DNA of 64,000 nucleotides. Origin: Roseivirga misakiensis. GTDB lineage: Bacteria > Bacteroidota > Bacteroidia > Cytophagales > Cyclobacteriaceae. Position 1 is the stretch's first letter, and every line of letters starts with the position of its first letter. The stretch covers positions 62,001-126,000 of the forward strand of contig NZ_MDGQ01000005.1 of assembly GCF_001747105.1 (NCBI RefSeq), in the 5' to 3' direction. A program made the translations under genes and the position numbers. Of this stretch, positions 44,683 through 57,225 are shown in pieces. The notes under the pieces were generated by a model. It ran no database searches. It saw only the letters and a program-made list of their open reading frames with translations, and was not told the DNA's origin.

Positions 44683-45990
44683 TTATTCGATACGCTCGAT
44701 TTTAGCACCAAGTGCATTTAGCCTAGTATCTATATGCTGATAACCCCGATCGATTTGTTCCACGTTATCAATTACACTAGTACCTTCCGCGGATAATGCA
44801 GCGATTAATAGTGCCTGACCCGCCCTAATATCAGGGGAAGTCATTCGAATTCCTTTTAACTTTTGCTGCCTATTAAGACCAATAACAGTCGCTCTGTGTG
44901 GGTCACAAAGGATAATTTGAGCACCCATGTCAATGAGCTTATCTACAAAAAATAGGCGACTTTCAAACATCTTTTGATGCACTAAAACGGTGCCTTTTGC
45001 CTGCGCAGCAACGACTAATACAATGCTCAGTAAGTCTGGCGTTAAACCAGGCCATATGGCATCGGCAATTGTCATGATAGAACCATCGATGAAAGTTTCT
45101 ATCTCATAGTTCTCTTGTGCAGGTACATAAATATCATCGCCTCGAAACTCCATTTTAATCCCAAGTCTTCTAAAAGTTTCTGGAATAAGACCAAGCTCTG
45201 GAATTTGGCAATCTTTGATCGTGATTTCTGATTGTGTCATGGCAGCCATACCAATGAAAGACCCAATTTCAATCATATCAGGTAGCATGGTGTGGTCTGT
45301 TCCGGCTAGGGCCTCAACACCTTCAATATGTAGTAGATTTGAACCAACGCCTGTGATTTTGGCGCCCATTCTGTTCAACATCTTAGATAACTGCTGTAAA
45401 TAAGGCTCACAGGCTGCATTATAAATGGTGGTTTTGCCTTTGGCTAAGACAGCTGCCATAAGAATATTGGCCGTACCTGTAACAGAAGCTTCATCCAAAA
45501 GCATGTAAGTGCCTTTTAAGTCTGAAGCATCGATATGGTACATGCCCGTTTCAGCTTCGTATAAAAATCTTGCCCCAAGTTTTTGAAACCCAATAAAATG
45601 AGTGTCTAGTCTTCTTCGGCCTATCTTATCTCCACCAGGTTTAGAGATTTTACCCTTTCCAAATCGAGCCAACAGAGGCCCTAAGATCATAATCGACCCA
45701 CGTAGAGAAGAAGCTTTTTTTCTAAACTCGTCAGTTTCGAGATAGTCTATATCAACATCTTTAGCACAAAAAGAGTAGCTCTCGCCAGAGAGGTGTTTCA
45801 CTTCCACACCCATATCAGCCAGCAGCTCTATGAGTTTATTGACATCACGGATGTCCGGTACTTTATGGATAGTAACGGTTTCCGGAGTTAGGAGAACCGC
45901 ACATAGGATTTGTAATGCTTCATTTTTTGCACCTTGAGGAATAATTTCCCCTGAAAGTCTGGTGCCACCTTCAATGACAAATGAGGACAT
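44683..45990 (-). CDS. murA: UDP-GlcNAc 1-carboxyvinyltransferase, Asp at catalytic position
   Basis: 435 residues. MurA adds enolpyruvate to UDP-GlcNAc, the first committed step of peptidoglycan synthesis. AKNEALQI (K22), SLRGSIMILGPLLARFG and the repeated EPSP-synthase-like fold identify it. In the active loop, E. coli has PGGC(T)IGARP; here PGGDKIGRRRLDTHF, so the catalytic Cys115 is replaced by D121. Cys-to-Asp MurA keeps activity in other bacteria and resists fosfomycin. It follows DUF4290 with adjacent stop and start. Confidence 0.96.
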   Translation of the reverse strand: MSSFVIEGGTRLSGEIIPQGAKNEALQILCAVLLTPETVTIHKVPDIRDVNKLIELLADMGVEVKHLSGESYSFCAKDVDIDYLETDEFRKKASSLRGSIMILGPLLARFGKGKISKPGGDKIGRRRLDTHFIGFQKLGARFLYEAETGMYHIDASDLKGTYMLLDEASVTGTANILMAAVLAKGKTTIYNAACEPYLQQLSKMLNRMGAKITGVGSNLLHIEGVEALAGTDHTMLPDMIEIGSFIGMAAMTQSEITIKDCQIPELGLIPETFRRLGIKMEFRGDDIYVPAQENYEIETFIDGSIMTIADAIWPGLTPDLLSIVLVVAAQAKGTVLVHQKMFESRLFFVDKLIDMGAQIILCDPHRATVIGLNRQQKLKGIRMTSPDIRAGQALLIAALSAEGTSVIDNVEQIDRGYQHIDTRLNALGAKIERIE

Positions 45991-46647
45991 TTAGTTTCTG
46001 CGTCTATTGTTATTACCTCTTCTTCGGTTGTGATGTTTTTTATCGCGATCGCCTCTATTGTCGCGGTTATGATGTCTTTTCTCTTTGATGTTATTGTTGA
46101 AAAGACCGAATTCTTTCACTTCTTCGATTGGGATATCGAGTTGATTGTTCGAAAGTTGTTTGATCTGCTTGAGGATGATTTCATCATCGATATTATCCTT
46201 ATTCCAAGTATTGTAGAAGCCTTTCATTAGCCTACCGATATGGATAACCGCCGACTTTTTTGATTCAGGATCTTCCATTTGGATAGCCTGCTCAATCATG
46301 ATCTCAACACTTCTTCCATAGTGCATATATCTGATTTTTGAGCTCTTGTAAGCTACTCTTTGTGGTTTTTTACCAATAGCCGACTTTTCTGGCATTGGGA
46401 AAGGAGCATCTATGGCTAAGTCGAAATTGGAAATGATATATAGATCATCCCATACTTTCTGATCGCTATCGACATTTGCCTTTAGATTAGGGTTGATCTG
46501 TTTCATAAGGTCCGTGAGCGTTTGTGCATAAGCACTTCTTTTCTCGTCGTCCTCGATGGTTCTTATGTGGTTAACTAACTTTTGAATATTGCGGCCATAT
46601 TCTTTTAGCCTTACGTCAGTTCGTTCTGTATTGTATTCTAATCCCAT
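45991..46647 (-). CDS. DUF4290 protein
   Basis: 218 residues. MGLEYNTERTDVRLKEYGRNIQKLV at the start (seen as MGLEYNTERTDVRLKEYG) and ISNFDLAIDAPFPMPE match DUF4290, a family confined to Bacteroidota. The last 30 residues are very basic (HHNRDNRGDRDKKHHNRRRG), suggesting nucleic-acid or anionic surface contact. Almost always next to murA; function not known to me. Confidence 0.88.
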   Translation of the reverse strand: MGLEYNTERTDVRLKEYGRNIQKLVNHIRTIEDDEKRSAYAQTLTDLMKQINPNLKANVDSDQKVWDDLYIISNFDLAIDAPFPMPEKSAIGKKPQRVAYKSSKIRYMHYGRSVEIMIEQAIQMEDPESKKSAVIHIGRLMKGFYNTWNKDNIDDEIILKQIKQLSNNQLDIPIEEVKEFGLFNNNIKEKRHHNRDNRGDRDKKHHNRRRGNNNRRRN

Positions 46648-46709
46648 TAATTTTTAAGTATACACCAAATTAACAATAAATATCTTAAAGCGCGGCTATG
46701 GCACTTGGC

Positions 46710-48974
46710 CTATTCCACTATCCTTAGTTTGGCGAATGTGAGTAATAATGTCTTTTCGCCGAAGTCTTCGAAAATAACTTTGGCTTTTTTATTGGCTCCA
46801 GAAGTATCCATTTTGGATACTTTTCCAAAACCAAATTTCGGATGCTCCACTTTCATGCCTTCTTGAAGACCAGAAGTATCACTAGGTCTGAAGTCGGCCG
46901 ATGGCTTATGATACTGCAGTGGCTTCTTAGGTGCTGATTTTTTATTGGCCATCAAGTTCCTTGCAAAATTTGCATTAAAACCCGGAGGCCCATCATTTCT
47001 TCCAAGTTTTGGCTCTCTGCTGCCGTACCGAGTATTGACAAAAATGAAACTAGGGTCTACTTCTTCAATAAATCTACTAGGTTCACAATTGATCAACCTT
47101 CCATAGCGATAACGTGATAGAGCATAGGAGAAGTATAAATTTTCCTTGGCTCTTGTAATTGCCACATAAAAAAGTCTTCTCTCTTCCTCTAAGTCGTCGC
47201 GACTGCTCATCATCATTTGCGATGGAAAAAGGTCTTCTTCCAATCCAACGATAAACACGTTCTTGAATTCTAACCCTTTGGAAGAATGGATTGTCATTAG
47301 CGACACAAAATCCTTATTATCTGGATCTTCGTTATCCTGATCGGTCAATAGGGCTACATCCTGTAAGAAGGCACCGAGACTTTTATCTTCAACCTCGGGC
47401 GTTTCAACAAATTCCTTGATTGCGTTCAAAAGCTCTTGAACGTTTTCATATCGGTTAAGCCCTTCAACAGTCTTATCATCATAAAGCTCTTTGAGTAGGC
47501 CGGAGTTTTTGGCAATATGACTAGCAGTTTCGTAAGCATCTTTCGATTGAACGTAAATCTGGAAACTCTTAATGAGCGTTACGAAATCGTTGACAGCATT
47601 AGCAGCCCTTCCCGGCAGAAATGCATTTACATTGTTCAACACTTCCCATAGCGGAATGTCATGCTCGAAAGCTGCGACAACTATCTTTTCAACAGAAGTT
47701 GGGCCGATTCCACGTTTTGGAAGGTTAATGATTCTACGAAATGACTGTTCGTCAGCAGTATTCATGGCAAACCTCAGGTAAGCCATTAAATCTTTGATTT
47801 CTTTCCGCTGATAGAAAGACAAACCGCCATAAATCTTATAATGAATACCAGATTTCCTTAAAGATTCTTCAATTGCCCTAGATTGGCTATTCGTTCGATA
47901 GAGAATGGCGAAATCTTCGTTTTTATAGTTGTTTTGACTTTTCTGCTCAAAGATGGCAGAGGCCACGAACCGACCTTCTTCGTTATCAGAGATTGATTTG
48001 ATAAGGTCAATCCTATTCCCATCATTATTTGTTGTCCAAACCTTCTTTTTGATCTGACCTTTATTTCTGGCAATAACCGAGTTGGCAGCATTGACGATAT
48101 TCTGAGTCGATCTATAATTCTGCTCCAATTTGATCACTTTCAAATCTGGAAAGTCTTTCTCGAAATTCAGGATATTCTCAATATTGGCACCTCGGAAGGC
48201 ATAAATAGATTGCGCATCGTCACCAACCACCGCGATATTTTGGCTTACCGCTGAAAGCTTTTTAGTGATTAAGTATTGAGAAACGTTGGTGTCCTGAAAC
48301 TCGTCTACCAATACATATTTAAACCGATGTTGGTATTTGTTCAAGATATCTACATGATCTCTGAATAAGACGTTTGTTTGGAAGAGCAGGTCATCAAAGT
48401 CCATGGCATTAGCTTTGAAGCACCTTTGGGCATAAGTCTTATAAATACGCCCCATTTCTGGTTTCTGCGCCGTTTCGTCATCTGCAGCGTAGATTGGATT
48501 GTTTACATATTCTTGCCATGAAACTAACCTGTTTTTAGCGCTTGAAATACGGCTAAAAACTACATTCGGTTTGTAAACCTTATCATCTAGACCGAACTCT
48601 TTTACAATAGTCTTGATCAAAGACTTCGAGTCGTCGGCATCGTAAATTGTAAAATTGCTGGGGTAACCCAATCTGTCAGCTTCTGCTCGAAGAATTCTAG
48701 CAAAAACAGAGTGAAAAGTGCCCATCCATAAATTACGAGCATTACTTCCTACAACGGTGGCAATTCTCTCACGCATTTCTTTTGCCGCCTTATTGGTAAA
48801 GGTCAGCGCTAGAATGCTAAATGGATCGACACCTTTTTCCTTGATCAAATAAGCGATGCGATAAGTCAGCACACGCGTTTTACCAGACCCAGCACCGGCA
48901 ATAATCATTGCAGGTCCTTCGGTGTTGACTACACCTTCGTATTGGGGCTCGTTGAGTGATGCTAAGTAATCCAT
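46710..48974 (-). CDS. UvrD/PcrA-type superfamily 1 DNA helicase
   Basis: 754 residues. Motif I IIAGAGSGKTR, Ia FTNKAAKEMR, II VLVDEFQDTN, III GDDAQSIYAFRGA, IV LEQNYRST, V MTIHSSKGLEF and VI VAITRAKE are all present and in order. The C-terminus has a small basic Tudor-like part (EGMKVEHPKFGFGKV), as in PcrA. 3'-5' unwinding in repair and replication restart. Not coupled to its neighbours. Confidence 0.96.
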   Translation of the reverse strand: MDYLASLNEPQYEGVVNTEGPAMIIAGAGSGKTRVLTYRIAYLIKEKGVDPFSILALTFTNKAAKEMRERIATVVGSNARNLWMGTFHSVFARILRAEADRLGYPSNFTIYDADDSKSLIKTIVKEFGLDDKVYKPNVVFSRISSAKNRLVSWQEYVNNPIYAADDETAQKPEMGRIYKTYAQRCFKANAMDFDDLLFQTNVLFRDHVDILNKYQHRFKYVLVDEFQDTNVSQYLITKKLSAVSQNIAVVGDDAQSIYAFRGANIENILNFEKDFPDLKVIKLEQNYRSTQNIVNAANSVIARNKGQIKKKVWTTNNDGNRIDLIKSISDNEEGRFVASAIFEQKSQNNYKNEDFAILYRTNSQSRAIEESLRKSGIHYKIYGGLSFYQRKEIKDLMAYLRFAMNTADEQSFRRIINLPKRGIGPTSVEKIVVAAFEHDIPLWEVLNNVNAFLPGRAANAVNDFVTLIKSFQIYVQSKDAYETASHIAKNSGLLKELYDDKTVEGLNRYENVQELLNAIKEFVETPEVEDKSLGAFLQDVALLTDQDNEDPDNKDFVSLMTIHSSKGLEFKNVFIVGLEEDLFPSQMMMSSRDDLEEERRLFYVAITRAKENLYFSYALSRYRYGRLINCEPSRFIEEVDPSFIFVNTRYGSREPKLGRNDGPPGFNANFARNLMANKKSAPKKPLQYHKPSADFRPSDTSGLQEGMKVEHPKFGFGKVSKMDTSGANKKAKVIFEDFGEKTLLLTFAKLRIVE

Positions 48975-49160
48975 GAAAAAGGGTGATTTCTATCTAAAGT
49001 CGATCTGTTTGCAAGATAAGACTTTCGACTCGGGAAACACTTAAAGTTACTGGGTCAGTTGAAAATAAAAGGTGCTTTTCAATTATTTCTTTCTTAGCTA
49101 CTTTCTCCAAGAAGTGTTCTAACTAATTAGAAATATCCCGTTATCCATACAGCGGACAAA

Positions 49161-49346
49161 CTACTTCTGTCTCTTCTTTCTGTTTTGATAATCATACCAT
49201 CCTGTAATGATGAATGTACCAAACAAGAATGCCATTAGATAATGTGCCCACCCTTGACTGTCAAATACAAACCATTCAGGGAAGAAGTAAAGCAAAATAT
49301 ATGTGAGAACCAAGAGCACCTGAATAATACGAAGAGGCTTGATCAC
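49161..49346 (-). CDS. Two-helix small membrane protein of the peptide operon
   Basis: 61 residues. Two hydrophobic segments (about 8-23 and 34-50) separated by a short loop with Trp residues, basic tail NRKKRQK. No homologue recognised. It starts 5 bases after the stop of the C39 exporter, so it is the last gene of that operon. Could be an accessory to export or immunity, or a bystander. Confidence 0.65.
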   Translation of the reverse strand: MIKPLRIIQVLLVLTYILLYFFPEWFVFDSQGWAHYLMAFLFGTFIITGWYDYQNRKKRQK

Positions 49347-49351
49347 AAATG

Positions 49352-51526
49352 TTAGTTTATTATAAGTTTAAGATTGTTTTCCCTATAAAAATCACTAAAA
49401 AAGTTTCCGTTTTTTAGTAATTCCGATGGAGAACCCGACTGACTTATGGTGTTATTTTCCAAAATGTAAATCTTGTCTGACTTAGCTGCCGTGGTTATTC
49501 TATGAGTTACCAAAAGAATAAGTTTTGACTCTTTCAGCTTTTTGAGAATTGTTAAAACAAACTGCTCAGTCTTTCGGTCCAAGGCAGATGTAGCCTCGTC
49601 GAGTAAAAGAATTTCAGGGTTTGACCACAAAGCTCTCGCAAGACCAACTAGCTGCTTTTGTCCTCCAGAAATATTTACACCTTCTTCACCTAAAATCGTC
49701 CCATAACTTTGTGGGAATTGATTGAAATATTCATCAAAACCATATTTCAACATAAATGCTTCTATTTTTTTGGGTTCAGCGTCAGACACCCCCAAAAGGA
49801 TATTATCAAGGAGGCTGCCATTGAATATCTTAATTTCTTGCGGGACGACTCCGATTTTGGATCGAATGGCCGTTGTATTAATTTCTGAATATTCTTGATT
49901 ATCAAGTTTTATGCAACCTCCCTCTTGCGTATAGAATTTTTGAAGAATCTGTATAAAAGTACTCTTGCCTCCTCCGCTCTCACCCAAAAGACAAACCGTT
50001 TTACCTTTTCTAAGTTCTAGATTGAACTCCTTTAATAATTGTTTTCTTCCTGGAAAACGGAAGCTTAAATTTTCAACCGTCAATGATTGAACTTCCTTGA
50101 TTTCTTGAAAGGTTATAGTAGGATTAAATTCTGGTTCGATTGATGTGAATTCATACATTCTGTCGAAAGCAATTTTAGCTTCTCTAATTTGGATATGTGC
50201 ATTCGTCATTCCTTCGATTGCGGGGAAAATCCCTCCCGCCATTGATGTTAGGGCTACCAATTCGCCAATTTGAAGTTTATTTCTTAGGACAAGGAACGAC
50301 GCAAAGGCCAAAATAGAAGTCATAGCCAGAACGCCCACTACTTGAGTAATAATTCCATATTTGAGGCCAATATATCCCAAGTGATAAACTTTGTTCTGAA
50401 AACGGCCATAAATAGATTCAGTTATTTTACTGAAAACAGACTCTTTTGTCTGGTTTTTGATGACCTCAATCCCTTGAATCGTATCTACATAATTACTTTC
50501 ATTCAAGGCATAAGACTGCATGACCTCTCTTTGCCCTGCTGTGATTGGGTTAATAAACTTCCAAATGACAAAGAGGTAAATGGGAATAAAGGACAAGAGC
50601 AACACACCTATTTCCCAAGAGTAAGTAAAGACAAAAACTATGGACGTTAAACCCAAAAGTAACTGAATCAAAGTATCTCCAAGTACAAAGCTGATGGTAC
50701 GTTGAATTCTGTTGGTATCATTCATTCGAGCAATTAACTCACCAGTCTTACGTGTATCAAAAAAGCGTTTAGGTAAATAAAGTAATGCGCTATAAAATTT
50801 TTTTATAATTCGATTATTAAAATCTTTTGACTGCCTAAGAATTATTAGTGTTCTTAAATAGAGCACACCAGACTTCGCAAGTAATAAAGTGGTAAGGAGT
50901 GTTAAGCCCAAAATAAGCCGCTCAGAATCTTGACTTGGTAGAATATCATCAATTAGCCGTTGTGAAAAAATAGCAGTACTTATGCCTAAAACTGATATAA
51001 TAATCCCCAAAAATGTGGCTATACCAAGGATGCCGTAGTCTTCTTTGACCAAGGAAAGGAGCCAATTCTTCTTTTTGCTTTTTTGTTCTTTTGAGCGTTT
51101 GAGCTTATTTGTAGGCTTAAGTAAGAGAAGTGCTTTTGATTTCCATATCTCTGTAAGATCTTGCTCAGTTAAATATTTAATCTTTTCTGCTGGATCACTG
51201 ATAAGAAATTTGCCATTTCGATATCCAAATAAGCAAATATAGTGTTGTAGTTCTTGATTAATAATTACATGTAATATGGCAGGGTTTTTAAGAGATTTTA
51301 GATCTTTTAACCTACCCTGAAAACCATCTGCCTTCAGTCCAATTTCATTTGCTGCTTGAAAAAGTCCTAACAGCGTCGTTCCTTCCTTGGTTGTACCACT
51401 GATTTCTCGAAGTCTTTCCAAACTAATCTCGGAATCAAAATATCGAAGAATGGTAGCAAGGCAAGCGACTCCGCAGTCCGATTGATCTCTTTGCTTTACA
51501 TGTTTAATTCGTATTTGGCTTATCAT
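49352..51526 (-). CDS. Peptidase C39-containing ABC exporter (PCAT type)
   Basis: 724 residues in three parts. C39 peptidase (1-135): Q12, catalytic C18 in QSDCGVAC, H95 and D111, all present. Six-helix membrane domain about 160-440. ATPase: Walker A GESGGGKS (515-522), signature NISGGQKQ (618-625), Walker B LLLDEATS (D643, E644), H675. Such exporters cut leaders after a double-glycine site and translocate the peptide. Two GG-type precursors lie upstream in the same operon. No HlyD-type adaptor gene is nearby. Starts 7 bases after the preceding stop. Confidence 0.95.
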   Translation of the reverse strand: MISQIRIKHVKQRDQSDCGVACLATILRYFDSEISLERLREISGTTKEGTTLLGLFQAANEIGLKADGFQGRLKDLKSLKNPAILHVIINQELQHYICLFGYRNGKFLISDPAEKIKYLTEQDLTEIWKSKALLLLKPTNKLKRSKEQKSKKKNWLLSLVKEDYGILGIATFLGIIISVLGISTAIFSQRLIDDILPSQDSERLILGLTLLTTLLLAKSGVLYLRTLIILRQSKDFNNRIIKKFYSALLYLPKRFFDTRKTGELIARMNDTNRIQRTISFVLGDTLIQLLLGLTSIVFVFTYSWEIGVLLLSFIPIYLFVIWKFINPITAGQREVMQSYALNESNYVDTIQGIEVIKNQTKESVFSKITESIYGRFQNKVYHLGYIGLKYGIITQVVGVLAMTSILAFASFLVLRNKLQIGELVALTSMAGGIFPAIEGMTNAHIQIREAKIAFDRMYEFTSIEPEFNPTITFQEIKEVQSLTVENLSFRFPGRKQLLKEFNLELRKGKTVCLLGESGGGKSTFIQILQKFYTQEGGCIKLDNQEYSEINTTAIRSKIGVVPQEIKIFNGSLLDNILLGVSDAEPKKIEAFMLKYGFDEYFNQFPQSYGTILGEEGVNISGGQKQLVGLARALWSNPEILLLDEATSALDRKTEQFVLTILKKLKESKLILLVTHRITTAAKSDKIYILENNTISQSGSPSELLKNGNFFSDFYRENNLKLIIN

Positions 51527-51533
51527 GAATTAC

Positions 51534-52433
51534 TCATTTCGAGACAATTAAACCTAATGACAGATTCACATTCCAGGTTTTTTTACCGATAAACAATTCG
51601 TTAAAATGGGCAAGGTGCCATTTGGCGTCATTTGTTTTCGTGAATGTTTTGTATTTCGATACTTTTTTATCGACCTTCCCTCGGAGGCCAATAGTATTCA
51701 TATCAACGTTGCCTTGCACCAATCTTCCCTTGGAATCAACAAATCCAATCAACTCAATACCTACATAAAAACCATTATCGGGTAACCTGAGTCCGTATTC
51801 ACTTACATCAATTGAATAATATTTTTGATTACTATCTGAAACAAAAAAGGTCTCTTTTACCTTACCAAATTCTTTGTCTGGAAACTCATTACCATGAGTG
51901 TATGTATAAAATTTTGGTCTAAGTATTAGATCATTATATTCGACCTTTTTTAGATTGAATAGCGGTATTTTTATCGATAAGACTCGACTGTTCTTAGGGT
52001 ACTCATCGTTAGGGATGAATAACACAATCTCCATTTTAGTGTTTATGTTGATAGTGAAATTTTTCTTCTTTGTGAGATTACCAATAGTCTCTTGTTTTTC
52101 GGCATTAGCGTTGACAACGAACGACCCTAAATTGACCTCTAGAGGTTCTAAGAGTAATGTGTCAGATATAATAGACTTTGCAAAAAAAATTGTACTGCTA
52201 TATGCGACGTGTTGAATTTTTATACTTTCAACAAATTCCACAGTAAAAATACCTGTTTCATTTGAGTAGGTAAAGTTCCCGTTATTGGCTTTGACTGTAG
52301 CATAAGATATTGGCTCTGAGTTTGTTTTATCTAGGAGTATGAAAGTTCTGCCTTGGGCAAACGTATCATTAGCCACAGATGACACAACCAGTAGAGCCAA
52401 TAAATTAAATTGTTTAAAAAAACATGCTGTCAT
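51534..52433 (-). CDS. Secreted protein with carboxypeptidase regulatory-like domain, in peptide operon
   Basis: 299 residues. The start at 52433 overlaps the upstream precursor stop as ATGA; an ATG at 52445 would add four residues. Signal peptide FNLLALLVVSSVANDTFA|QG. Residues 30-105 (FILLDKTNSEPISYATVKA, YSNETGIFTV, AYSSTIF) resemble a CarboxypepD-regulatory-like fold, common as extracellular beta-sandwich in Bacteroidota. The rest is beta-rich and ends LSLGLIVSK, without TonB-receptor barrel features. Role unknown; coupling to the precursor gene argues for a role in peptide export, presentation or immunity. Confidence 0.8.
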   Translation of the reverse strand: MTACFFKQFNLLALLVVSSVANDTFAQGRTFILLDKTNSEPISYATVKANNGNFTYSNETGIFTVEFVESIKIQHVAYSSTIFFAKSIISDTLLLEPLEVNLGSFVVNANAEKQETIGNLTKKKNFTININTKMEIVLFIPNDEYPKNSRVLSIKIPLFNLKKVEYNDLILRPKFYTYTHGNEFPDKEFGKVKETFFVSDSNQKYYSIDVSEYGLRLPDNGFYVGIELIGFVDSKGRLVQGNVDMNTIGLRGKVDKKVSKYKTFTKTNDAKWHLAHFNELFIGKKTWNVNLSLGLIVSK

Positions 52434-52627
52434 ACACGGATACATAATCCAATATCACTTTTGACCTCTGTTTTGGTACGAATGAAGAAAGCGTGATATG
52501 TTCTTGTGCAGGTTTTACCACATTGAAAAGGGCTGTACCAAACTACCTCTCCACATTCCCAATCAGTCCAGCCAAAAAACTTAGATCCACTGATGTTCTC
52601 CATAGATTTTAGACTTAATTCTTTCAT
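52430..52627 (-). CDS. Double-glycine-type precursor peptide A (GWTDW family)
   Basis: 65 residues. The 15-residue leader MKELSLKSMENISGS has the spacing of GG leaders (hydrophobic at -4, -7, -12; Gly-Ser at -2/-1). The predicted mature peptide of 50 residues starts KFFGWTDWEC and has Cys at positions 10, 21, 25 and 47, plus FFIR. It is homologous to peptide B encoded 1 base upstream. Leader cleavage by the C39 exporter is inference. No modification enzyme is nearby, so disulfides are the simplest crosslinks. Family not recognised. Confidence 0.82.
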   Translation of the reverse strand: MKELSLKSMENISGSKFFGWTDWECGEVVWYSPFQCGKTCTRTYHAFFIRTKTEVKSDIGLCIRV

Positions 52628-52628
52628 C

Positions 52629-52835
52629 TTAATTAACAGTTAATTCGTTCGCAATTTGTTCACAAGTTCCAGAATTGTATTCGTAGGAATCTCGGATAAA
52701 AAATGTAAAGTGTTTTCGGACGCAATTTGTCCAACACAGTCCATTGTTTGTAGTGCTCGTACACTTCCAATCAGTCCAGCCCCAAAATTTGCCACCTGTT
52801 AGATTCGATAACTGTTCACTCTTTAATTTTTGCAT
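52629..52835 (-). CDS. Double-glycine-type precursor peptide B (GWTDW family)
   Basis: 68 residues from the ATG at 52835; a longer frame to 52934 would overlap the preceding gene and hide the leader. Leader MQKLKSEQLSNLTGG is a canonical double-glycine leader (L at -4, L at -7, L at -12). The mature part, about 53 residues, begins KFWGWTDWKC with Cys at 10, 19, 23 and 43. Shared with peptide A: GWTDWxC, Cx3C, FFIR and a final Cys. Sits 11 bases after the membrane protein gene. Confidence 0.85.
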   Translation of the reverse strand: MQKLKSEQLSNLTGGKFWGWTDWKCTSTTNNGLCWTNCVRKHFTFFIRDSYEYNSGTCEQIANELTVN

Positions 52836-52846
52836 AATTATATAGT

Positions 52847-53476
52847 TTAATTGAAAATAAAATTTGATAAACTTAATATTGACACAATAAGTAATAGTAT
52901 GCCATAATAAGATAAGGCGATTGTTTTGAAGCATTGAAAAAATGAATGTTTCCCATTTTTATGAAGCCTAACTGCAAAGAGAATAATATATACTGCTTGA
53001 GTAATTGTAATGAACTTTAAGATGTCTCGTAGAGTAGGATTGATGGTTTTTTCTTTAAAAAACCATAGTAGTGATTGGAAATCATTGTTCTCAATCTCTG
53101 AGATATTCGGGTTAATGAATAAGATTTTTGTTGCAACAAGAACCATGTAGCTAAGAGGAAAGATAAAGTGAGATTCAAATGATGATTTGAGTACGTAGGC
53201 ACCTTTTAATTCTCGAAAGTATATAAAGTTACCGAGCCAAACTGATACGAATGAAAAGAGTATTATGGCCATCATGTAAGGAATCACCAGTAAATAGTTT
53301 ACCCATTCAGAATCTCTATCTTCTTTGATAAGATTCTCGATATTTTCTGGACTAAGAGAACTTGAAAACGACCGGAAATACATTTCATCTGAATACAGAT
53401 AGTTTAATTCAACATATATAGCTAAAGCATATATTGATAAATTGATTAGTAATAGAGTAACTAGGTGTTTCTTCAC
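52847..53476 (-). CDS. Five-helix membrane protein, candidate immunity protein
   Basis: 209 residues with about five membrane helices: near 4-24, 60-82, 105-123, 150-170 and 185-207. A soluble loop with EDRDSEW lies after the first helix. No family recognised. Located directly before the precursor genes and co-directional. In bacteriocin operons, small polytopic membrane proteins often confer immunity, but here that is only positional inference; a role in export is equally possible. AT-rich compared with flanking housekeeping genes. Confidence 0.75.
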   Translation of the reverse strand: MKKHLVTLLLINLSIYALAIYVELNYLYSDEMYFRSFSSSLSPENIENLIKEDRDSEWVNYLLVIPYMMAIILFSFVSVWLGNFIYFRELKGAYVLKSSFESHFIFPLSYMVLVATKILFINPNISEIENNDFQSLLWFFKEKTINPTLRDILKFITITQAVYIILFAVRLHKNGKHSFFQCFKTIALSYYGILLLIVSILSLSNFIFN

Positions 53477-53558
53477 TTGTGTCTCGTTGATTAACGAATG
53501 TATGAGCGGTGACTGAAATAAAATTGCAGTGACAAAAAAATGTTTAAAAAATTATAAA

Positions 53559-53792
53559 TTATACTTTCGTAAAGCCGTGATTCCATACTACAAGGTACTC
53601 GTAGCAGTAAGATCTAATAGAGTTATCGAAATAGATGGGAGCTCCCATTTCTTTCATTAAATCGATGGTATTATAGAATTGGCGTTCGCTTATATCGAGC
53701 TTTTCTGCGCACTCTCTTGCATTGCCTGTTGCTCCTAGTCTTATGAGTTGATCGAGCCTTTCTATTCTTTGTGTCTGTTTTAACATATGCAT
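53559..53792 (-). CDS. Small HTH regulator of the peptide operon
   Basis: 77 residues, with the start at 53792 (ATG at 53786 also possible). RIERLDQLIRLGATGNARECAEKLDISERQFYNTIDLMKEMGAPI reads as an HTH_11/DeoR-like winged helix (recognition helix ERQFYNTIDLM); the end SYCYEYLVVW replaces a longer effector domain. Similar small HTH proteins head double-glycine peptide loci in Bacteroidota (from memory). It is first in the direction of transcription, 82 bases before the membrane protein gene. Confidence 0.78.
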   Translation of the reverse strand: MHMLKQTQRIERLDQLIRLGATGNARECAEKLDISERQFYNTIDLMKEMGAPIYFDNSIRSYCYEYLVVWNHGFTKV

Positions 53793-53915
53793 CCAATATT
53801 AAATACAGCTCAGGATTTATAAAGGTAGGATTAAATAATTAATAAGTAATAGAATAAATGTTAAAAGTTATGTTTTGTAATTTACCTGAGGACAGGTATA
53901 ATGACTTTGTCACTG

Positions 53916-55010
53916 CTAAGGATGAATTACGTTCTTAAAGTACTCCTCATAATTCGAGATGGTATTTTCGATGTTAAAGGTCACTAGCGCAGTTTCTTTT
54001 CCATTAGTTTTAAGCATTTCCCGTAGTGCTTGATTATGCTTTAACTCAAGTACGTTTTCGGCTATTTTTTCAATGTCACCATCTTCAAAAAGGAGACCAT
54101 TGACACCATCTTCTATTAGGTCTAAATTACCAGCAAAAGCTGTGGCCGTAACGGGTACTTCTAGGGCCATGGACTCTAACAGCGCCTGAGAGAGGCCTTC
54201 CATAGTAGAAGCCAAAATATTAGCATCAAATAGTTTGTAGTAGTTCAATATTTCGGGAGAGTCGACATGGGCTTCAAAGTGGAGTTTATGATCTGTGGAA
54301 TATTGGCTGATAATCTCCTTCATTTCGGCTGTAGGTTCAATGCCACAGAAAATAACGGTGATGGGCTCTTTTATCAGCTTGAGAGCTTTAATAATCTGGA
54401 TTTGATTCTTAATCCTTGAAACACAACCTAAAACGAAGTCTTCATGCTGAAGCTTAAATTTCTTCTGTAAAGCAGATACGCGATCAATATCGATTTGATC
54501 ATATTTTTCGGTTGGAGTGCCATTATAAATAACGGCTATATTTTTCTCCTTGATACCAACCTTTATAAGACCCTCTTTTACTTGTTTGCCAACGGCCACG
54601 ATACCATCTGTATACCTATTATATAGTAGTAACTGCAATGGCCCGCCCATGCTCTTTGGCATTTGCCTTCTAGTATGTATGATTTTAACATCTAATCCAT
54701 AACGCCATTTGGCAAAAACACTCGTGTACCTGTCGTGGCTGGATTGAGGATTTATTAACTGAATACCATGATTCTGGACAGCATCTCTTATTTGGCGCCA
54801 GTTTTTAAGGTCAAACTTTCCTTTGAAAGTCATCGGGATTCTATTGACAGCGGACCCCTCCAGCAAGCTCCAAAGTAAGCTTTCTCGGCGTATACCAATA
54901 TGGATTTCATGTCCTCTTTCGGCCAAACCCTTCGCTAGGTAAGCGATCGAATTGGTAGACCCAGCAACATCACCTTGATAGGTGAGAAATAATATTTTGA
55001 GTGGATTCAA
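53916..55010 (-). CDS. GT4-family glycosyltransferase
   Basis: 364 residues from a TTG at 55010, which gives MNPLKILFLTYQGDVAGSTNS, the normal GT-B opening. The frame stays open to ATGs at 55115 and 55178, but those add an unconserved stretch and the latter overlaps the divergent sigma gene. The C-terminal half has VLGCVSRIKNQ, ILASTMEGLSQALLESMALE (seen as STMEGLSQALLESMAL) and the E-x7-E site with DGVNGLLFEDGD. Retaining GT4 enzymes use nucleotide sugars for lipopolysaccharide or capsule; the acceptor is unknown. Confidence 0.88.
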   Translation of the reverse strand: MNPLKILFLTYQGDVAGSTNSIAYLAKGLAERGHEIHIGIRRESLLWSLLEGSAVNRIPMTFKGKFDLKNWRQIRDAVQNHGIQLINPQSSHDRYTSVFAKWRYGLDVKIIHTRRQMPKSMGGPLQLLLYNRYTDGIVAVGKQVKEGLIKVGIKEKNIAVIYNGTPTEKYDQIDIDRVSALQKKFKLQHEDFVLGCVSRIKNQIQIIKALKLIKEPITVIFCGIEPTAEMKEIISQYSTDHKLHFEAHVDSPEILNYYKLFDANILASTMEGLSQALLESMALEVPVTATAFAGNLDLIEDGVNGLLFEDGDIEKIAENVLELKHNQALREMLKTNGKETALVTFNIENTISNYEEYFKNVIHP

Positions 55011-55162
55011 ATTTTTGATGATACAAAAAAGAATAAACGTGGGTTGATATACAAACTTGAGTAGCTTTGGGAACGAATTTGCCTCTATAAGGGTATTTTT
55101 TTGATGTATAAACATCGCCCTACGATTAGGGACTAGCTTATTTTTTTGACTAATTTTAAAAC

Positions 55163-55768
55163 ATGTCTGAAGAAGCACTACAAGATGAACACGAAGTTCG
55201 ACGACAGAACTATTCCGAGATGGAAAAGACTGAAATCTTCGATAAGGAATTCATGCCTCATGTGGATTCTATGTACAACTTCGCTTATCGATTAACCTTT
55301 GATGAAGATGATGCCAAGGATTTGGTTCAAGACACTTATTTAAAGGCGTTTAGATTTATCAATTCCTTTGAAAGAGGAACTAATGCAAAAGCATGGTTGT
55401 TCCGCATATTGAAAAATAGCTTTATCAACGAATTCAGGAAAAAGAGTAAACAGCCTGCTAAAGTTGATTACAATGAAGTTGAGCAATTTTATAATTCTGA
55501 TGATGCTGGGGAACAAATCACCACGGATTTAAGGGTTGAAACGGTTCAACATATGATTGGCGATGAGATTTCTGGTGCATTAAATGGTATTCCAGTAGAT
55601 TTTAGAACGGTTATTATTCTTAGCGATTTGGAAGGGTTTACCTATGAGGAGATGTCTAAGATTTTGGACATTCCGATCGGTACGGTAAGGTCTAGGTTAC
55701 ACCGAGCCAGAAACATGCTGAAAGACAAGTTAGCGGCTTATGCGAAAGAAATGGGATTTAATAAATAG
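55163..55768 (+). CDS. ECF-type RNA polymerase sigma factor
   Basis: 201 residues. Region 2 is MYNFAYRLTFDEDDAKDLVQDTYLKAF, with the DAEDLVQ-type core, region 4 ends IPIGTVRSRLHRARNML. The link between them is longer than usual (about 60 residues). It should direct RNA polymerase to a stress or envelope regulon. The small gene 6 bases downstream is probably its partner. Divergent from the glycosyltransferase. Confidence 0.94.
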   Translation: MSEEALQDEHEVRRQNYSEMEKTEIFDKEFMPHVDSMYNFAYRLTFDEDDAKDLVQDTYLKAFRFINSFERGTNAKAWLFRILKNSFINEFRKKSKQPAKVDYNEVEQFYNSDDAGEQITTDLRVETVQHMIGDEISGALNGIPVDFRTVIILSDLEGFTYEEMSKILDIPIGTVRSRLHRARNMLKDKLAAYAKEMGFNK

Positions 55769-55774
55769 AATATA

Positions 55775-56068
55775 ATGGCAGAGTTTTCAGATTGGTTCAA
55801 AGAGACTTTTAAGAACTGTTATTGCGAGCAAGGGAATTTAATCGATGAAAAACGCTTCGCTGAAATCGTTCAACTCGTATTAGATAACGAGGCTGACGAG
55901 GAATCAAGAGCTATTTTCGAAGAAAAGATTAAATCATGTGTAAAGTCAAACTTTACATTTGAGAATGAAAAAAGTATGCGGGAAGAGATTCAGAAGAAAT
56001 TGAGCGCGCATACCGGTGAAATCCCGACTGATCTAGCCCAAACGATCAGAAACAGCGTGAACCTATAG
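55775..56068 (+). CDS. Small partner of the ECF sigma factor, putative anti-sigma factor
   Basis: 97 residues, mostly helical and soluble: no membrane helix and no standard ZAS zinc motif, but Cys at 15, 17 and 55. [26 protein letters not shown] resembles the helical N-terminal part of anti-sigma proteins. The call rests on the 6-base gap to the sigma gene. It could instead be a redox-sensing cytoplasmic regulator. Confidence 0.7.
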
Positions 56069-56073
56069 TAAGA

Positions 56074-56646
56074 ATGACAAAGGGCAAGGCATTTATTTTT
56101 ACTGCTCCTTCTGGTTCAGGAAAAACAACAATAGTAAAACACCTCCTTAGTACGCACCCAAAACTGGGTTTTTCTATATCTGCATCCACTAGAGATAAGC
56201 GAGGAAGAACGGAGGAAAATGGTAAAGACTACTATTTCTTAAGTAGAGACGAATTCACACAAAAGATTGACGAAGACGCTTTCATCGAATGGGAGGAAGT
56301 CTACACCGGAAACTATTATGGCACACTCAAAGCCGAAGTTCAACGCGTTTGGGATGAGGGTAAACATGTAGTTTTTGATGTTGAGGTCAAAGGGGCGCTA
56401 AAGCTCAAAGAGTATTTCGGCGATGACGCCTTGGCGATATTTGTTAAGGTACCCAGTATGGAGGAGCTCGAAAAAAGACTAACTGGCAGAGGAACAGAGT
56501 CGAGAGAGAGTCTTTCACAACGTCTCTACCGAGCGAAATTTGAGATGACATTCGAAAACAAGTTTGATGTAACTTTGCTTAATAAAGAGCTCGATGACTC
56601 TTTCCAAAAGGCAGAGGCACTCGTCAACAACTTTTTAAAGTCATAG
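56074..56646 (+). CDS. gmk: Guanylate kinase
   Basis: 190 residues. P-loop [36 protein letters not shown] holds the GMP site (Ser, Arg, Glu, Tyr), and [17 protein letters not shown] is the lid. It phosphorylates GMP to GDP. Located 5 bases after the small sigma partner and 3 bases before nadD, so it may share the sigma-gene transcript. Confidence 0.97.
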
Positions 56647-56649
56647 ATT

Positions 56650-57225
56650 TTGAATATTGGCCTATTCTTCGGCTCTTTTAATCCAATTCATATTGGACAT
56701 CTTGTTATAGCAGATGTTATGGCGAGCCAGACTGATATAGATGAGGTTTGGTTTGTGGTTAGTCCTCAAAACCCATTCAAAAATAGTCGTACGCTTTTAC
56801 ATGAGTTCGACAGATTAAAAATGGTAGAATTGGCGGTCGCAGATAATTATAAGTTTCGTGCGAGTGATGTTGAATTCAATATGCCAAGGCCGAGTTACAC
56901 GGCAGATACCCTTGCTTATTTATCCGACAAGAACCCTCAACACAGTTTTAAGCTGATTATAGGAGAAGATAATCTACTACATTTTCACAAGTGGAAGAAT
57001 CATCAGGCTATTCTGGATAATTTTGGACTCTATGTTTACCCCAGGCCACAAGTAGATAAAGATAAAATCAAAGTGAGTCACCAAAATATCAGATATGTGG
57101 ATTCACCTATGCTTGATATTTCTGCTACCTTTATTCGCAATGCGATCCAAAACGAGCATTCCGTACAATATCTTTTGCCGCCGACAGTAGTAGAGTACAT
57201 CAACTTGAAGAAGTTCTACCAATAA
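56650..57225 (+). CDS. nadD: Nicotinate-nucleotide adenylyltransferase
   Basis: 191 residues, start TTG at 56650 giving MNIGLFFGSFNPIHIGHLVIAD with the HxGH nucleotidyl-transfer motif. VSPQNPFKNSRTLLHEFDRLKMVELA and the C-terminal ISATFIRNAI (SSTxIR-type) motif agree with NadD. It makes nicotinic acid adenine dinucleotide in NAD synthesis. Confidence 0.96.
   Translation: MNIGLFFGSFNPIHIGHLVIADVMASQTDIDEVWFVVSPQNPFKNSRTLLHEFDRLKMVELAVADNYKFRASDVEFNMPRPSYTADTLAYLSDKNPQHSFKLIIGEDNLLHFHKWKNHQAILDNFGLYVYPRPQVDKDKIKVSHQNIRYVDSPMLDISATFIRNAIQNEHSVQYLLPPTVVEYINLKKFYQ

What the first reader, a model, noticed from the sequence alone, without database searches (positions are those of the whole stretch)
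49161..53792. Undescribed double-glycine peptide operon with C39 exporter
Seven minus-strand genes, six of them spaced by 11 bases or less or overlapping, form one unit: HTH regulator, five-helix membrane protein, two homologous GG-leader peptides, secreted CarboxypepD-like protein, intact C39 exporter, two-helix mini-protein. It lies between housekeeping genes (helicase and glycosyltransferase) and appears AT-richer than either flank. Peptide core, immunity candidate and secreted partner match no family I know, so this may be a new bacteriocin or signalling-peptide class.
Basis: partly seen in the sequence, partly recalled or inferred. Interest (0 to 1): 0.86.

Follow-up and report, generated by a model that had tools for sequence, protein, structure and literature searches.

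The report
Bacteroidetocin-like twin-peptide bacteriocin operon variant
A marine bacterium carries a small gene set that probably makes and exports two related antibacterial peptides; it resembles a kind already known from gut bacteria but has an unusual partner protein in place of the usual helper enzyme.

Summary
The operon is real and was read correctly, but it is probably not a new class. Its gene set (five-helix membrane protein, four-Cys peptides with 15-residue leaders, C39 exporter) matches the published bacteroidetocins (class IIf bacteriocins, Coyne 2019). The window's five-helix protein groups with L211's (100/99) while its exporter belongs to another lineage. The five-helix protein is probably not immunity: the published counterpart did not protect. 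Unusual here: two old paralogous peptides, no thiol oxidoreductase, and a secreted CarboxypepD-domain protein in its slot. The swap recurs in Roseivirga thermotolerans (same site) and in a genome of another family (L212: 5TM, GGKFWG peptide, CarboxypepD protein, exporter). The HTH belongs to a widespread family found at several kinds of peptide loci; a dyad element lies behind it in a few of them. The mini-protein is not conserved. Best reading: a bacteroidetocin-type twin-peptide bacteriocin (about 0.7), new variant of a known kind. Direct comparison with published peptide letters, activity, target and the CarboxypepD protein's role are untested.

The parts
53559..53792 (-). Small HTH regulator (77 aa, or 75 from the ATG at 53786)
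   Evidence: HTH_11 E 5.6e-4, below cut-off; 66% identical in R. thermotolerans at the same place; family in 84 of 196 family genomes
53510..53532 (-). Conserved dyad element behind the HTH gene, candidate operator
   Evidence: 22 of 23 bases kept in R. thermotolerans; 15-base core exact in L095, where both arms differ together, and in L150; no RNA fold signal
52847..53476 (-). Five-helix membrane protein (209 aa), probable counterpart of the bacteroidetocin 5TM protein
   Evidence: five hydrophobic segments; profile relatives beside C39 exporters in several families; groups with L211's
52629..52835 (-). Precursor peptide 1: 15-aa leader ending GG, 53-aa core, 4 Cys
52430..52627 (-). Precursor peptide 2: 15-aa leader ending GS, 50-aa core, 4 Cys
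51534..52445 (-). Secreted CarboxypepD-domain protein, start probably at 52433 (ATGA overlap); stands where L211 has its thiol oxidoreductase
   Evidence: hydrophobic N-terminus; 47% in R. thermotolerans; full-length homologue in the L212 operon (E 2e-12 by profile; 6e-10 by blastp)
49352..51526 (-). C39 peptidase/ABC exporter (724 aa)
   Evidence: Pfam; 75% in R. thermotolerans, 66% in a second peptide operon of the genus
49161..49346 (-). Mini-protein (61 aa), probably not part of the system
   Evidence: no match in the R. thermotolerans operon; 51% homologue in G209 at the same site, where no exporter or peptide of this kind was seen

Best explanation
It is a bacteroidetocin-type (class IIf-like) bacteriocin operon. 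Two precursor peptides with 15-residue leaders are cut after GG (or GS) by the C39 domain while the exporter passes them into the periplasm; the five-helix protein assists their production. The four-Cys cores leave the cell and kill related Bacteroidota, perhaps through the outer-membrane protein BamA, as bacteroidetocin A does. In this variant the thiol oxidoreductase is missing and a secreted CarboxypepD-domain protein stands in its slot; I think it handles the cores in the periplasm or shields the producer. Shown here: anatomy, homology, conserved gene order, the swap, the 5TM grouping. Inferred: leader cleavage, export, killing, target, role of the CarboxypepD protein, control by the HTH through the dyad.
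For: Leader length, core length (53, 50; published 42 to 53), four Cys, 5TM gene and C39 exporter match the published description. L211 has the canonical order 5TM, GGKFWG peptide, thiol oxidoreductase, C39. G[GS]KF[WF]G occurs in 7 of 11,546 distinct small ORFs of the fetched loci; the 7 are these six peptides and one cut copy. A full-length profile of the other five peptides finds the L211 peptide at E 2.6e-7; next best is L074 at 7.9e-5, a locus fetched as a noise hit; best reversed control 0.05. The 5TM protein groups with L211's at 100/99, also with two long rows left out. The L212 operon repeats 5TM, GGKFWG peptide, CarboxypepD protein, exporter, with no oxidoreductase gene seen. Both paralogues are kept as pairs in R. 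thermotolerans (75% and 66%) although only 37% alike to each other.
Against: The letters of bacteroidetocins A and B were not available, so direct homology is untested. Over the mature part alone the L211 peptide is not found at E 10 with the four-peptide profile and is not among the 17 best listed with the five-peptide one; the full-length score leans on leader and KFWG. With the full-length four-peptide profile it scores 0.0042, behind four loci that had been fetched as noise. Net charge of the cores is 0 and +2, published +6 and +2. The exporter does not track the peptides (AU p 0.0014 with L211, 0.0043 with L212; the L211 row is long and of odd make-up). No thiol oxidoreductase. Rare: in 390 family genomes 58 have some match at E 0.1, but only the window's genome and R. 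thermotolerans score better than 0.001; searches around L211 and L212 found 1 of 171 and 1 of 130 (G555 itself) and 2 of 169 (G717 itself and a fragment at 9e-4 in a 203-aa frame).
Confidence: 0.7

Rival explanations
1. The peptides are signals: cut and exported cores are sensed by kin, and the HTH and dyad element close a regulatory loop.
For: A regulator gene and a conserved dyad lie directly upstream; the HTH family sits beside several kinds of small-peptide loci.
Against: No sensor kinase or receptor gene among the seven; four-Cys cores of 50 and 53 residues fit published bacteroidetocins; the HTH family is not specific to these peptides.
Confidence: 0.12
2. The peptides form a bacteriocin class of their own that shares only the general 5TM and C39 export kit with bacteroidetocins; the KFWG start is convergence.
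For: Mature-only profiles do not recover the L211 peptide; 5TM relatives also stand beside unrelated glycine-rich GG peptides.
Against: GG/GS-KF-W/F-G and four aligned Cys in all six peptides; the motif is otherwise absent from 11,546 small ORFs; the 5TM protein groups with the peptide type.
Confidence: 0.13
3. The peptides are substrates of a radical-SAM enzyme (TIGR04149-type precursors) and the operon exports a modified peptide.
For: Peptide 1 matches TIGR04149 at E 0.0015.
Against: 18.4 bits against a cut-off of 25, and the match (residues 3-31) is half leader; no radical-SAM or other modification enzyme was recognised in the operon, in L034 or in L212.
Confidence: 0.02

Closest known systems
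Bacteroidetocins A-D, class IIf bacteriocins of Bacteroidales (Coyne 2019, PMC6671954; target BamA, PMC8546649)
   Same: 5TM gene, small peptide with 15-aa leader and four Cys, C39 exporter; core length in the published range
   Different: no thiol oxidoreductase (published as present in most regions); a secreted CarboxypepD-domain protein in its slot; two paralogous peptides; one leader ends GS; HTH gene and dyad upstream; exporter lineage differs from that of L211; sits between housekeeping genes
   Same: 5TM of the same group, GGKFWG peptide with four Cys
   Different: thiol oxidoreductase present; single peptide; no CarboxypepD protein. It may be the Prevotella oryzae bacteroidetocin D region: 91, 83 or 81 genes (at least 60, 80 or 100 aa) were called before it and the published tag is 0090; an inference, not an identification
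Sibling operon in the same genus (L095, G257)
   Same: exporter 66% identical, same HTH family and dyad, 5TM-size membrane protein, a CarboxypepD protein
   Different: unrelated 60-aa GG peptide, thioredoxin-like gene present, different CarboxypepD protein (439 aa)
Class IIa (pediocin-like) bacteriocins
   Same: leader cut at a double glycine by a C39 exporter, Cys pairs (recalled)
   Different: no YGNGV motif in either core (motif as given in PMC6671954), no class IIa profile match, no recognised immunity gene

Membership tests
bacteroidetocin (class IIf) | leader of 15-16 residues ending in a GG site | tested here: met
   15 residues in both; GG in peptide 1, GS in peptide 2; cleavage itself not testable
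bacteroidetocin (class IIf) | mature core of 42 to 53 residues | tested here: met
   53 and 50; range from a passage of PMC8546649
bacteroidetocin (class IIf) | at least two Cys, four in A and B | tested here: met
   four aligned Cys in all six peptides
bacteroidetocin (class IIf) | gene for a membrane protein with five TM segments | tested here: met
   five segments; groups with L211's; orthology to the published proteins not tested
bacteroidetocin (class IIf) | C39 peptidase/ABC exporter gene | tested here: met
bacteroidetocin (class IIf) | thiol oxidoreductase gene (present in most, not all, published regions) | tested here: not met
   none among the window's genes or in the parts read of L034 and L212
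bacteroidetocin (class IIf) | sequence similarity to bacteroidetocins A/B | not testable with these tools
   letters stand in figures and supplements that are not held; GGKFWG is in no held paper text
bacteroidetocin (class IIf) | kills Bacteroidota, dependent on BamA | not testable with these tools
   needs peptide and strains
TIGR04149 radical-SAM precursor | score above curated cut-off, radical-SAM gene nearby | tested here: not met
   18.4 of 25 bits; no such gene recognised in the operon

The most novel reading that the evidence does not exclude
This is a bacteroidetocin branch in which a secreted CarboxypepD-domain protein has replaced the thiol oxidoreductase and gives the producer the self-protection that known bacteroidetocin strains lack, while two paralogous cores act together.
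Probability: 0.2. Interest if true: 0.7.

Novelty: new variant of a known kind. Interest (0 to 1): 0.48.

Why it matters
The published bacteroidetocin producers that were tested are sensitive to their own peptide and showed no immunity gene (PMC6671954, PMC8546649 passages). A variant with a different secreted partner in the same slot, seen in three genomes of two families, gives a concrete candidate for self-protection or for another way to handle four-Cys peptides, and extends such operons to the marine genus Roseivirga with two peptides at once.

Tried and rejected
Family profiles: the peptides, the 5TM protein, the secreted protein and the mini-protein reach no curated cut-off; among relatives, the CarboxypepD domain passes in several. 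CarboxypepD protein across 295 family genomes: 85 have a match at E 0.01 (the window's own included), many over the N-terminal domain only; the one close full-length match is G057. Plasmids and phages: no useful match to the secreted protein, the L211 peptide or the L211 5TM protein (one Streptomyces plasmid at E 4). Viral contigs: none. Genome contigs: none for the secreted protein, R. thermotolerans alone for the peptides.

Structure: both AlphaFold models are poor (mean pLDDT 48.9 and 45.7). Foldseek for the first gave nothing at E 0.001; the second was not searched because it is too weak. The C-terminal half of the secreted protein is predicted as mostly strands, no more.

Rejected: the 5TM protein as peptide-specific immunity (relatives sit beside many unrelated peptides; published test negative). 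Rejected: the dyad as a genome-wide regulon (18 matches at up to 3 mismatches in 12 of 19 genomes against 13 for the reversed pattern; exact only at the two operon sites). Rejected: an RNA hairpin (z -1.04, -0.47, -0.37; no Rfam match in 45000-57000). Not shown: that the window's CarboxypepD protein and L212's form a clade of their own (tree unresolved). No chance control was computed for the HTH's closeness to exporters. Loci L056 to L083 were fetched because they scored, so they rank high by selection.

Papers: PMC11195462 (passages) and PMC5167729 (one passage) gave neither peptide letters nor a genome identification. Paper searches gave 2, 0 and 2 listings, none on this system.

Full report
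What was checked. The seven frames, their spacing and the low GC are as described. The exporter is a complete C39 peptidase/ABC protein. The start of the secreted protein is more likely 52433, overlapping the stop of peptide 2 by ATGA, than 52445. The window lies on contig 5 of a 4.45-Mb genome.

Conservation. In R. thermotolerans the same site between uvrD helicase and glycosyltransferase carries HTH (66%), 5TM (48%), peptide 1 (75%), peptide 2 (66%), CarboxypepD protein (47%) and exporter (75%) in the same order, without the mini-gene. Of 19 genomes of the genus, 15 have uvrD directly beside the glycosyltransferase, 2 have the operon, G222 has the HTH (68%) with other cargo, and G209 has other cargo including a 51% homologue of the mini-protein. 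The site is variable and the operon sporadic. The operon is AT-rich in both species (0.350 here; 0.387 in R. thermotolerans with neighbours 0.454 and 0.437). The two peptides are more alike between species (75% and 66%) than to each other (37%), so the duplication is probably older than the species split and both copies were kept.

What it resembles. Coyne et al. 2019 (PMC6671954; abstract and outline, passages, sections 14 and 27 read) describe regions with a five-TM protein, a small peptide, a thiol oxidoreductase and a C39-type exporter; leaders of 15-16 residues; four Cys in A and B; the oxidoreductase in most regions. Deleting the TM or the oxidoreductase gene weakened activity; neither protected a sensitive strain; the tested producers are sensitive to their own toxin. 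PMC8546649 (passages only) gives cores of 42 to 53 residues and BamA as target. The window fits these points except the oxidoreductase.

Independent loci. A profile of eight 5TM proteins found matches in 22 of 395 genomes of the class at E 0.001. Of the 20 5TM proteins put in the tree, 12 stand in loci with a thioredoxin-like gene. The other eight: the window, L034, L118 and L212 have an exporter without one (L212's in two frames); L208 and L210 have short exporter-like proteins; L117 and L198 show no exporter in the part read. L197, one of the 12, ends at a contig edge before any exporter. A more distant set (L202 to L207, L213) shows no exporter in the part read; five of these seven (L202 to L206, one of them this genome) lie beside a membrane protein of 980 to 998 residues and may be a housekeeping paralogue. 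L211 (another family) has 5TM, peptide MKKISDEKLSKFSGGKFWG..., oxidoreductase, exporter. L212 (a further family) has 5TM, peptide MKELSLEKLENLEGGKFWG..., CarboxypepD protein, exporter, and no oxidoreductase gene.

Peptide homology. Nine columns are invariant in the six peptides: M1, G14, K16, F17, G19, C25, C34, C38, C58. The four-peptide profile of the window and R. thermotolerans finds L212 at E 6e-13 (full) and 2e-4 (mature only) among 11,546 distinct small ORFs, and L211 only at 0.0042 (full) and not at all (mature only); four loci fetched as noise rank above L211. With L212 added, L211 rises to 2.6e-7 full length, ahead of the noise locus L074 at 7.9e-5, but is still not among the 17 best in the mature part. 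The motif G[GS]KF[WF]G is found in no other small ORF of the set.

Trees. In the 5TM tree the window, R. thermotolerans and L211 form a clade (100/99), unchanged with two long rows left out; adding L212 is weakly supported (79/88). The exporter tree puts the window with R. thermotolerans and G257 (100/100), and rejects joining window and R. thermotolerans with L211 (p 0.0014) or with L212's first piece (p 0.0043) (15 rows; L211's exporter is a long row of odd make-up, so take the first p with care). So the 5TM protein follows the peptide type while the exporter follows the genus: the modules seem to have been recombined.

Regulator. The HTH family is in 84 of 196 family genomes, 50 of 84 genera. 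Of 20 neighbourhoods read, 8 have a C39 exporter (7 by script, plus L158 seen). By my own reading, which no profile backs, five more (L152, L155, L161, L162, L169) look like RiPP-like or beta-propeller-lipoprotein peptide loci; in the other seven I saw no peptide locus. Behind the HTH gene lies ACTGCAAT-TTT-ATTTCAGT, an imperfect dyad kept in R. thermotolerans; in G257, at another site with another peptide, both arms differ together (AGTG, CACT) and the 15-base core is exact. L150, of another genus, has the same form about 110 bases behind its HTH (place of the HTH; one search did not find it again). In one search the core is exact in 3 of 31 loci scored. G222 has 3 mismatches in the core, which L137 (and L127 and L129 in the other orientation) also reach, as do upstream controls in L140 and L143, so that score alone is background; a 34-base stretch around it does align at 85%. 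The dyad is a candidate operator, not a demonstrated one.

Reading. Most likely this is a twin-peptide bacteroidetocin-type bacteriocin with a secreted CarboxypepD-domain protein where most others have an oxidoreductase. Export and cleavage follow from the exporter family; killing and BamA are carried over by analogy. Direct comparison with the published peptide letters could not be made. Paper searches for 'bacteroidetocin' (15 papers, 10 listed), 'Roseivirga' with 'bacteriocin' (4 listed, none opened) and a combined search (1 listed) showed no title or abstract describing this variant; Coyne's own list of 19 peptides is in figures and supplements that I could not see, so I cannot exclude that one of the loci used here is in it.

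Noticed in passing
window 53559-53792; L152, L155, L161, L162, L166, L169: The small HTH family sits beside several unrelated kinds of small secreted-peptide loci (GG/C39, and by eye RiPP-like and beta-propeller lipoprotein loci), as if it often marked peptide loci in this family.
   Followed up: partly
L095 8507-14166: Second type of peptide operon in the same genus with an unrelated 60-aa GG peptide, thioredoxin-like gene, 439-aa CarboxypepD protein and two small membrane proteins.
   Followed up: partly
L199 5403-6806: Array of six different GG-leader peptides before one 5TM, thioredoxin-like, C39 set.
   Followed up: no
L154 5099-10636: C39 exporter, HTH, two pairs of GG-leader peptides and a CarboxypepD-like protein (30.8 bits, just below cut-off) between the pairs, with a second partial HTH frame.
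   Followed up: no
L208, L209, L210: 5TM genes beside short (453-479 aa) C39-type proteins and glycine-rich GG peptides; the exporter seems reduced.
   Followed up: no
L204 7172-7816 (own genome); also L202, L203, L205, L206: 5TM paralogue beside a membrane protein of 980 to 998 residues, with no exporter in the part read.
   Followed up: no
L099 8211-10703 (own genome): Another C39 exporter of this genome lies beside a 46-aa Arg-rich GG peptide with close relatives in two other genomes of the genus (L097, L098).
   Followed up: no
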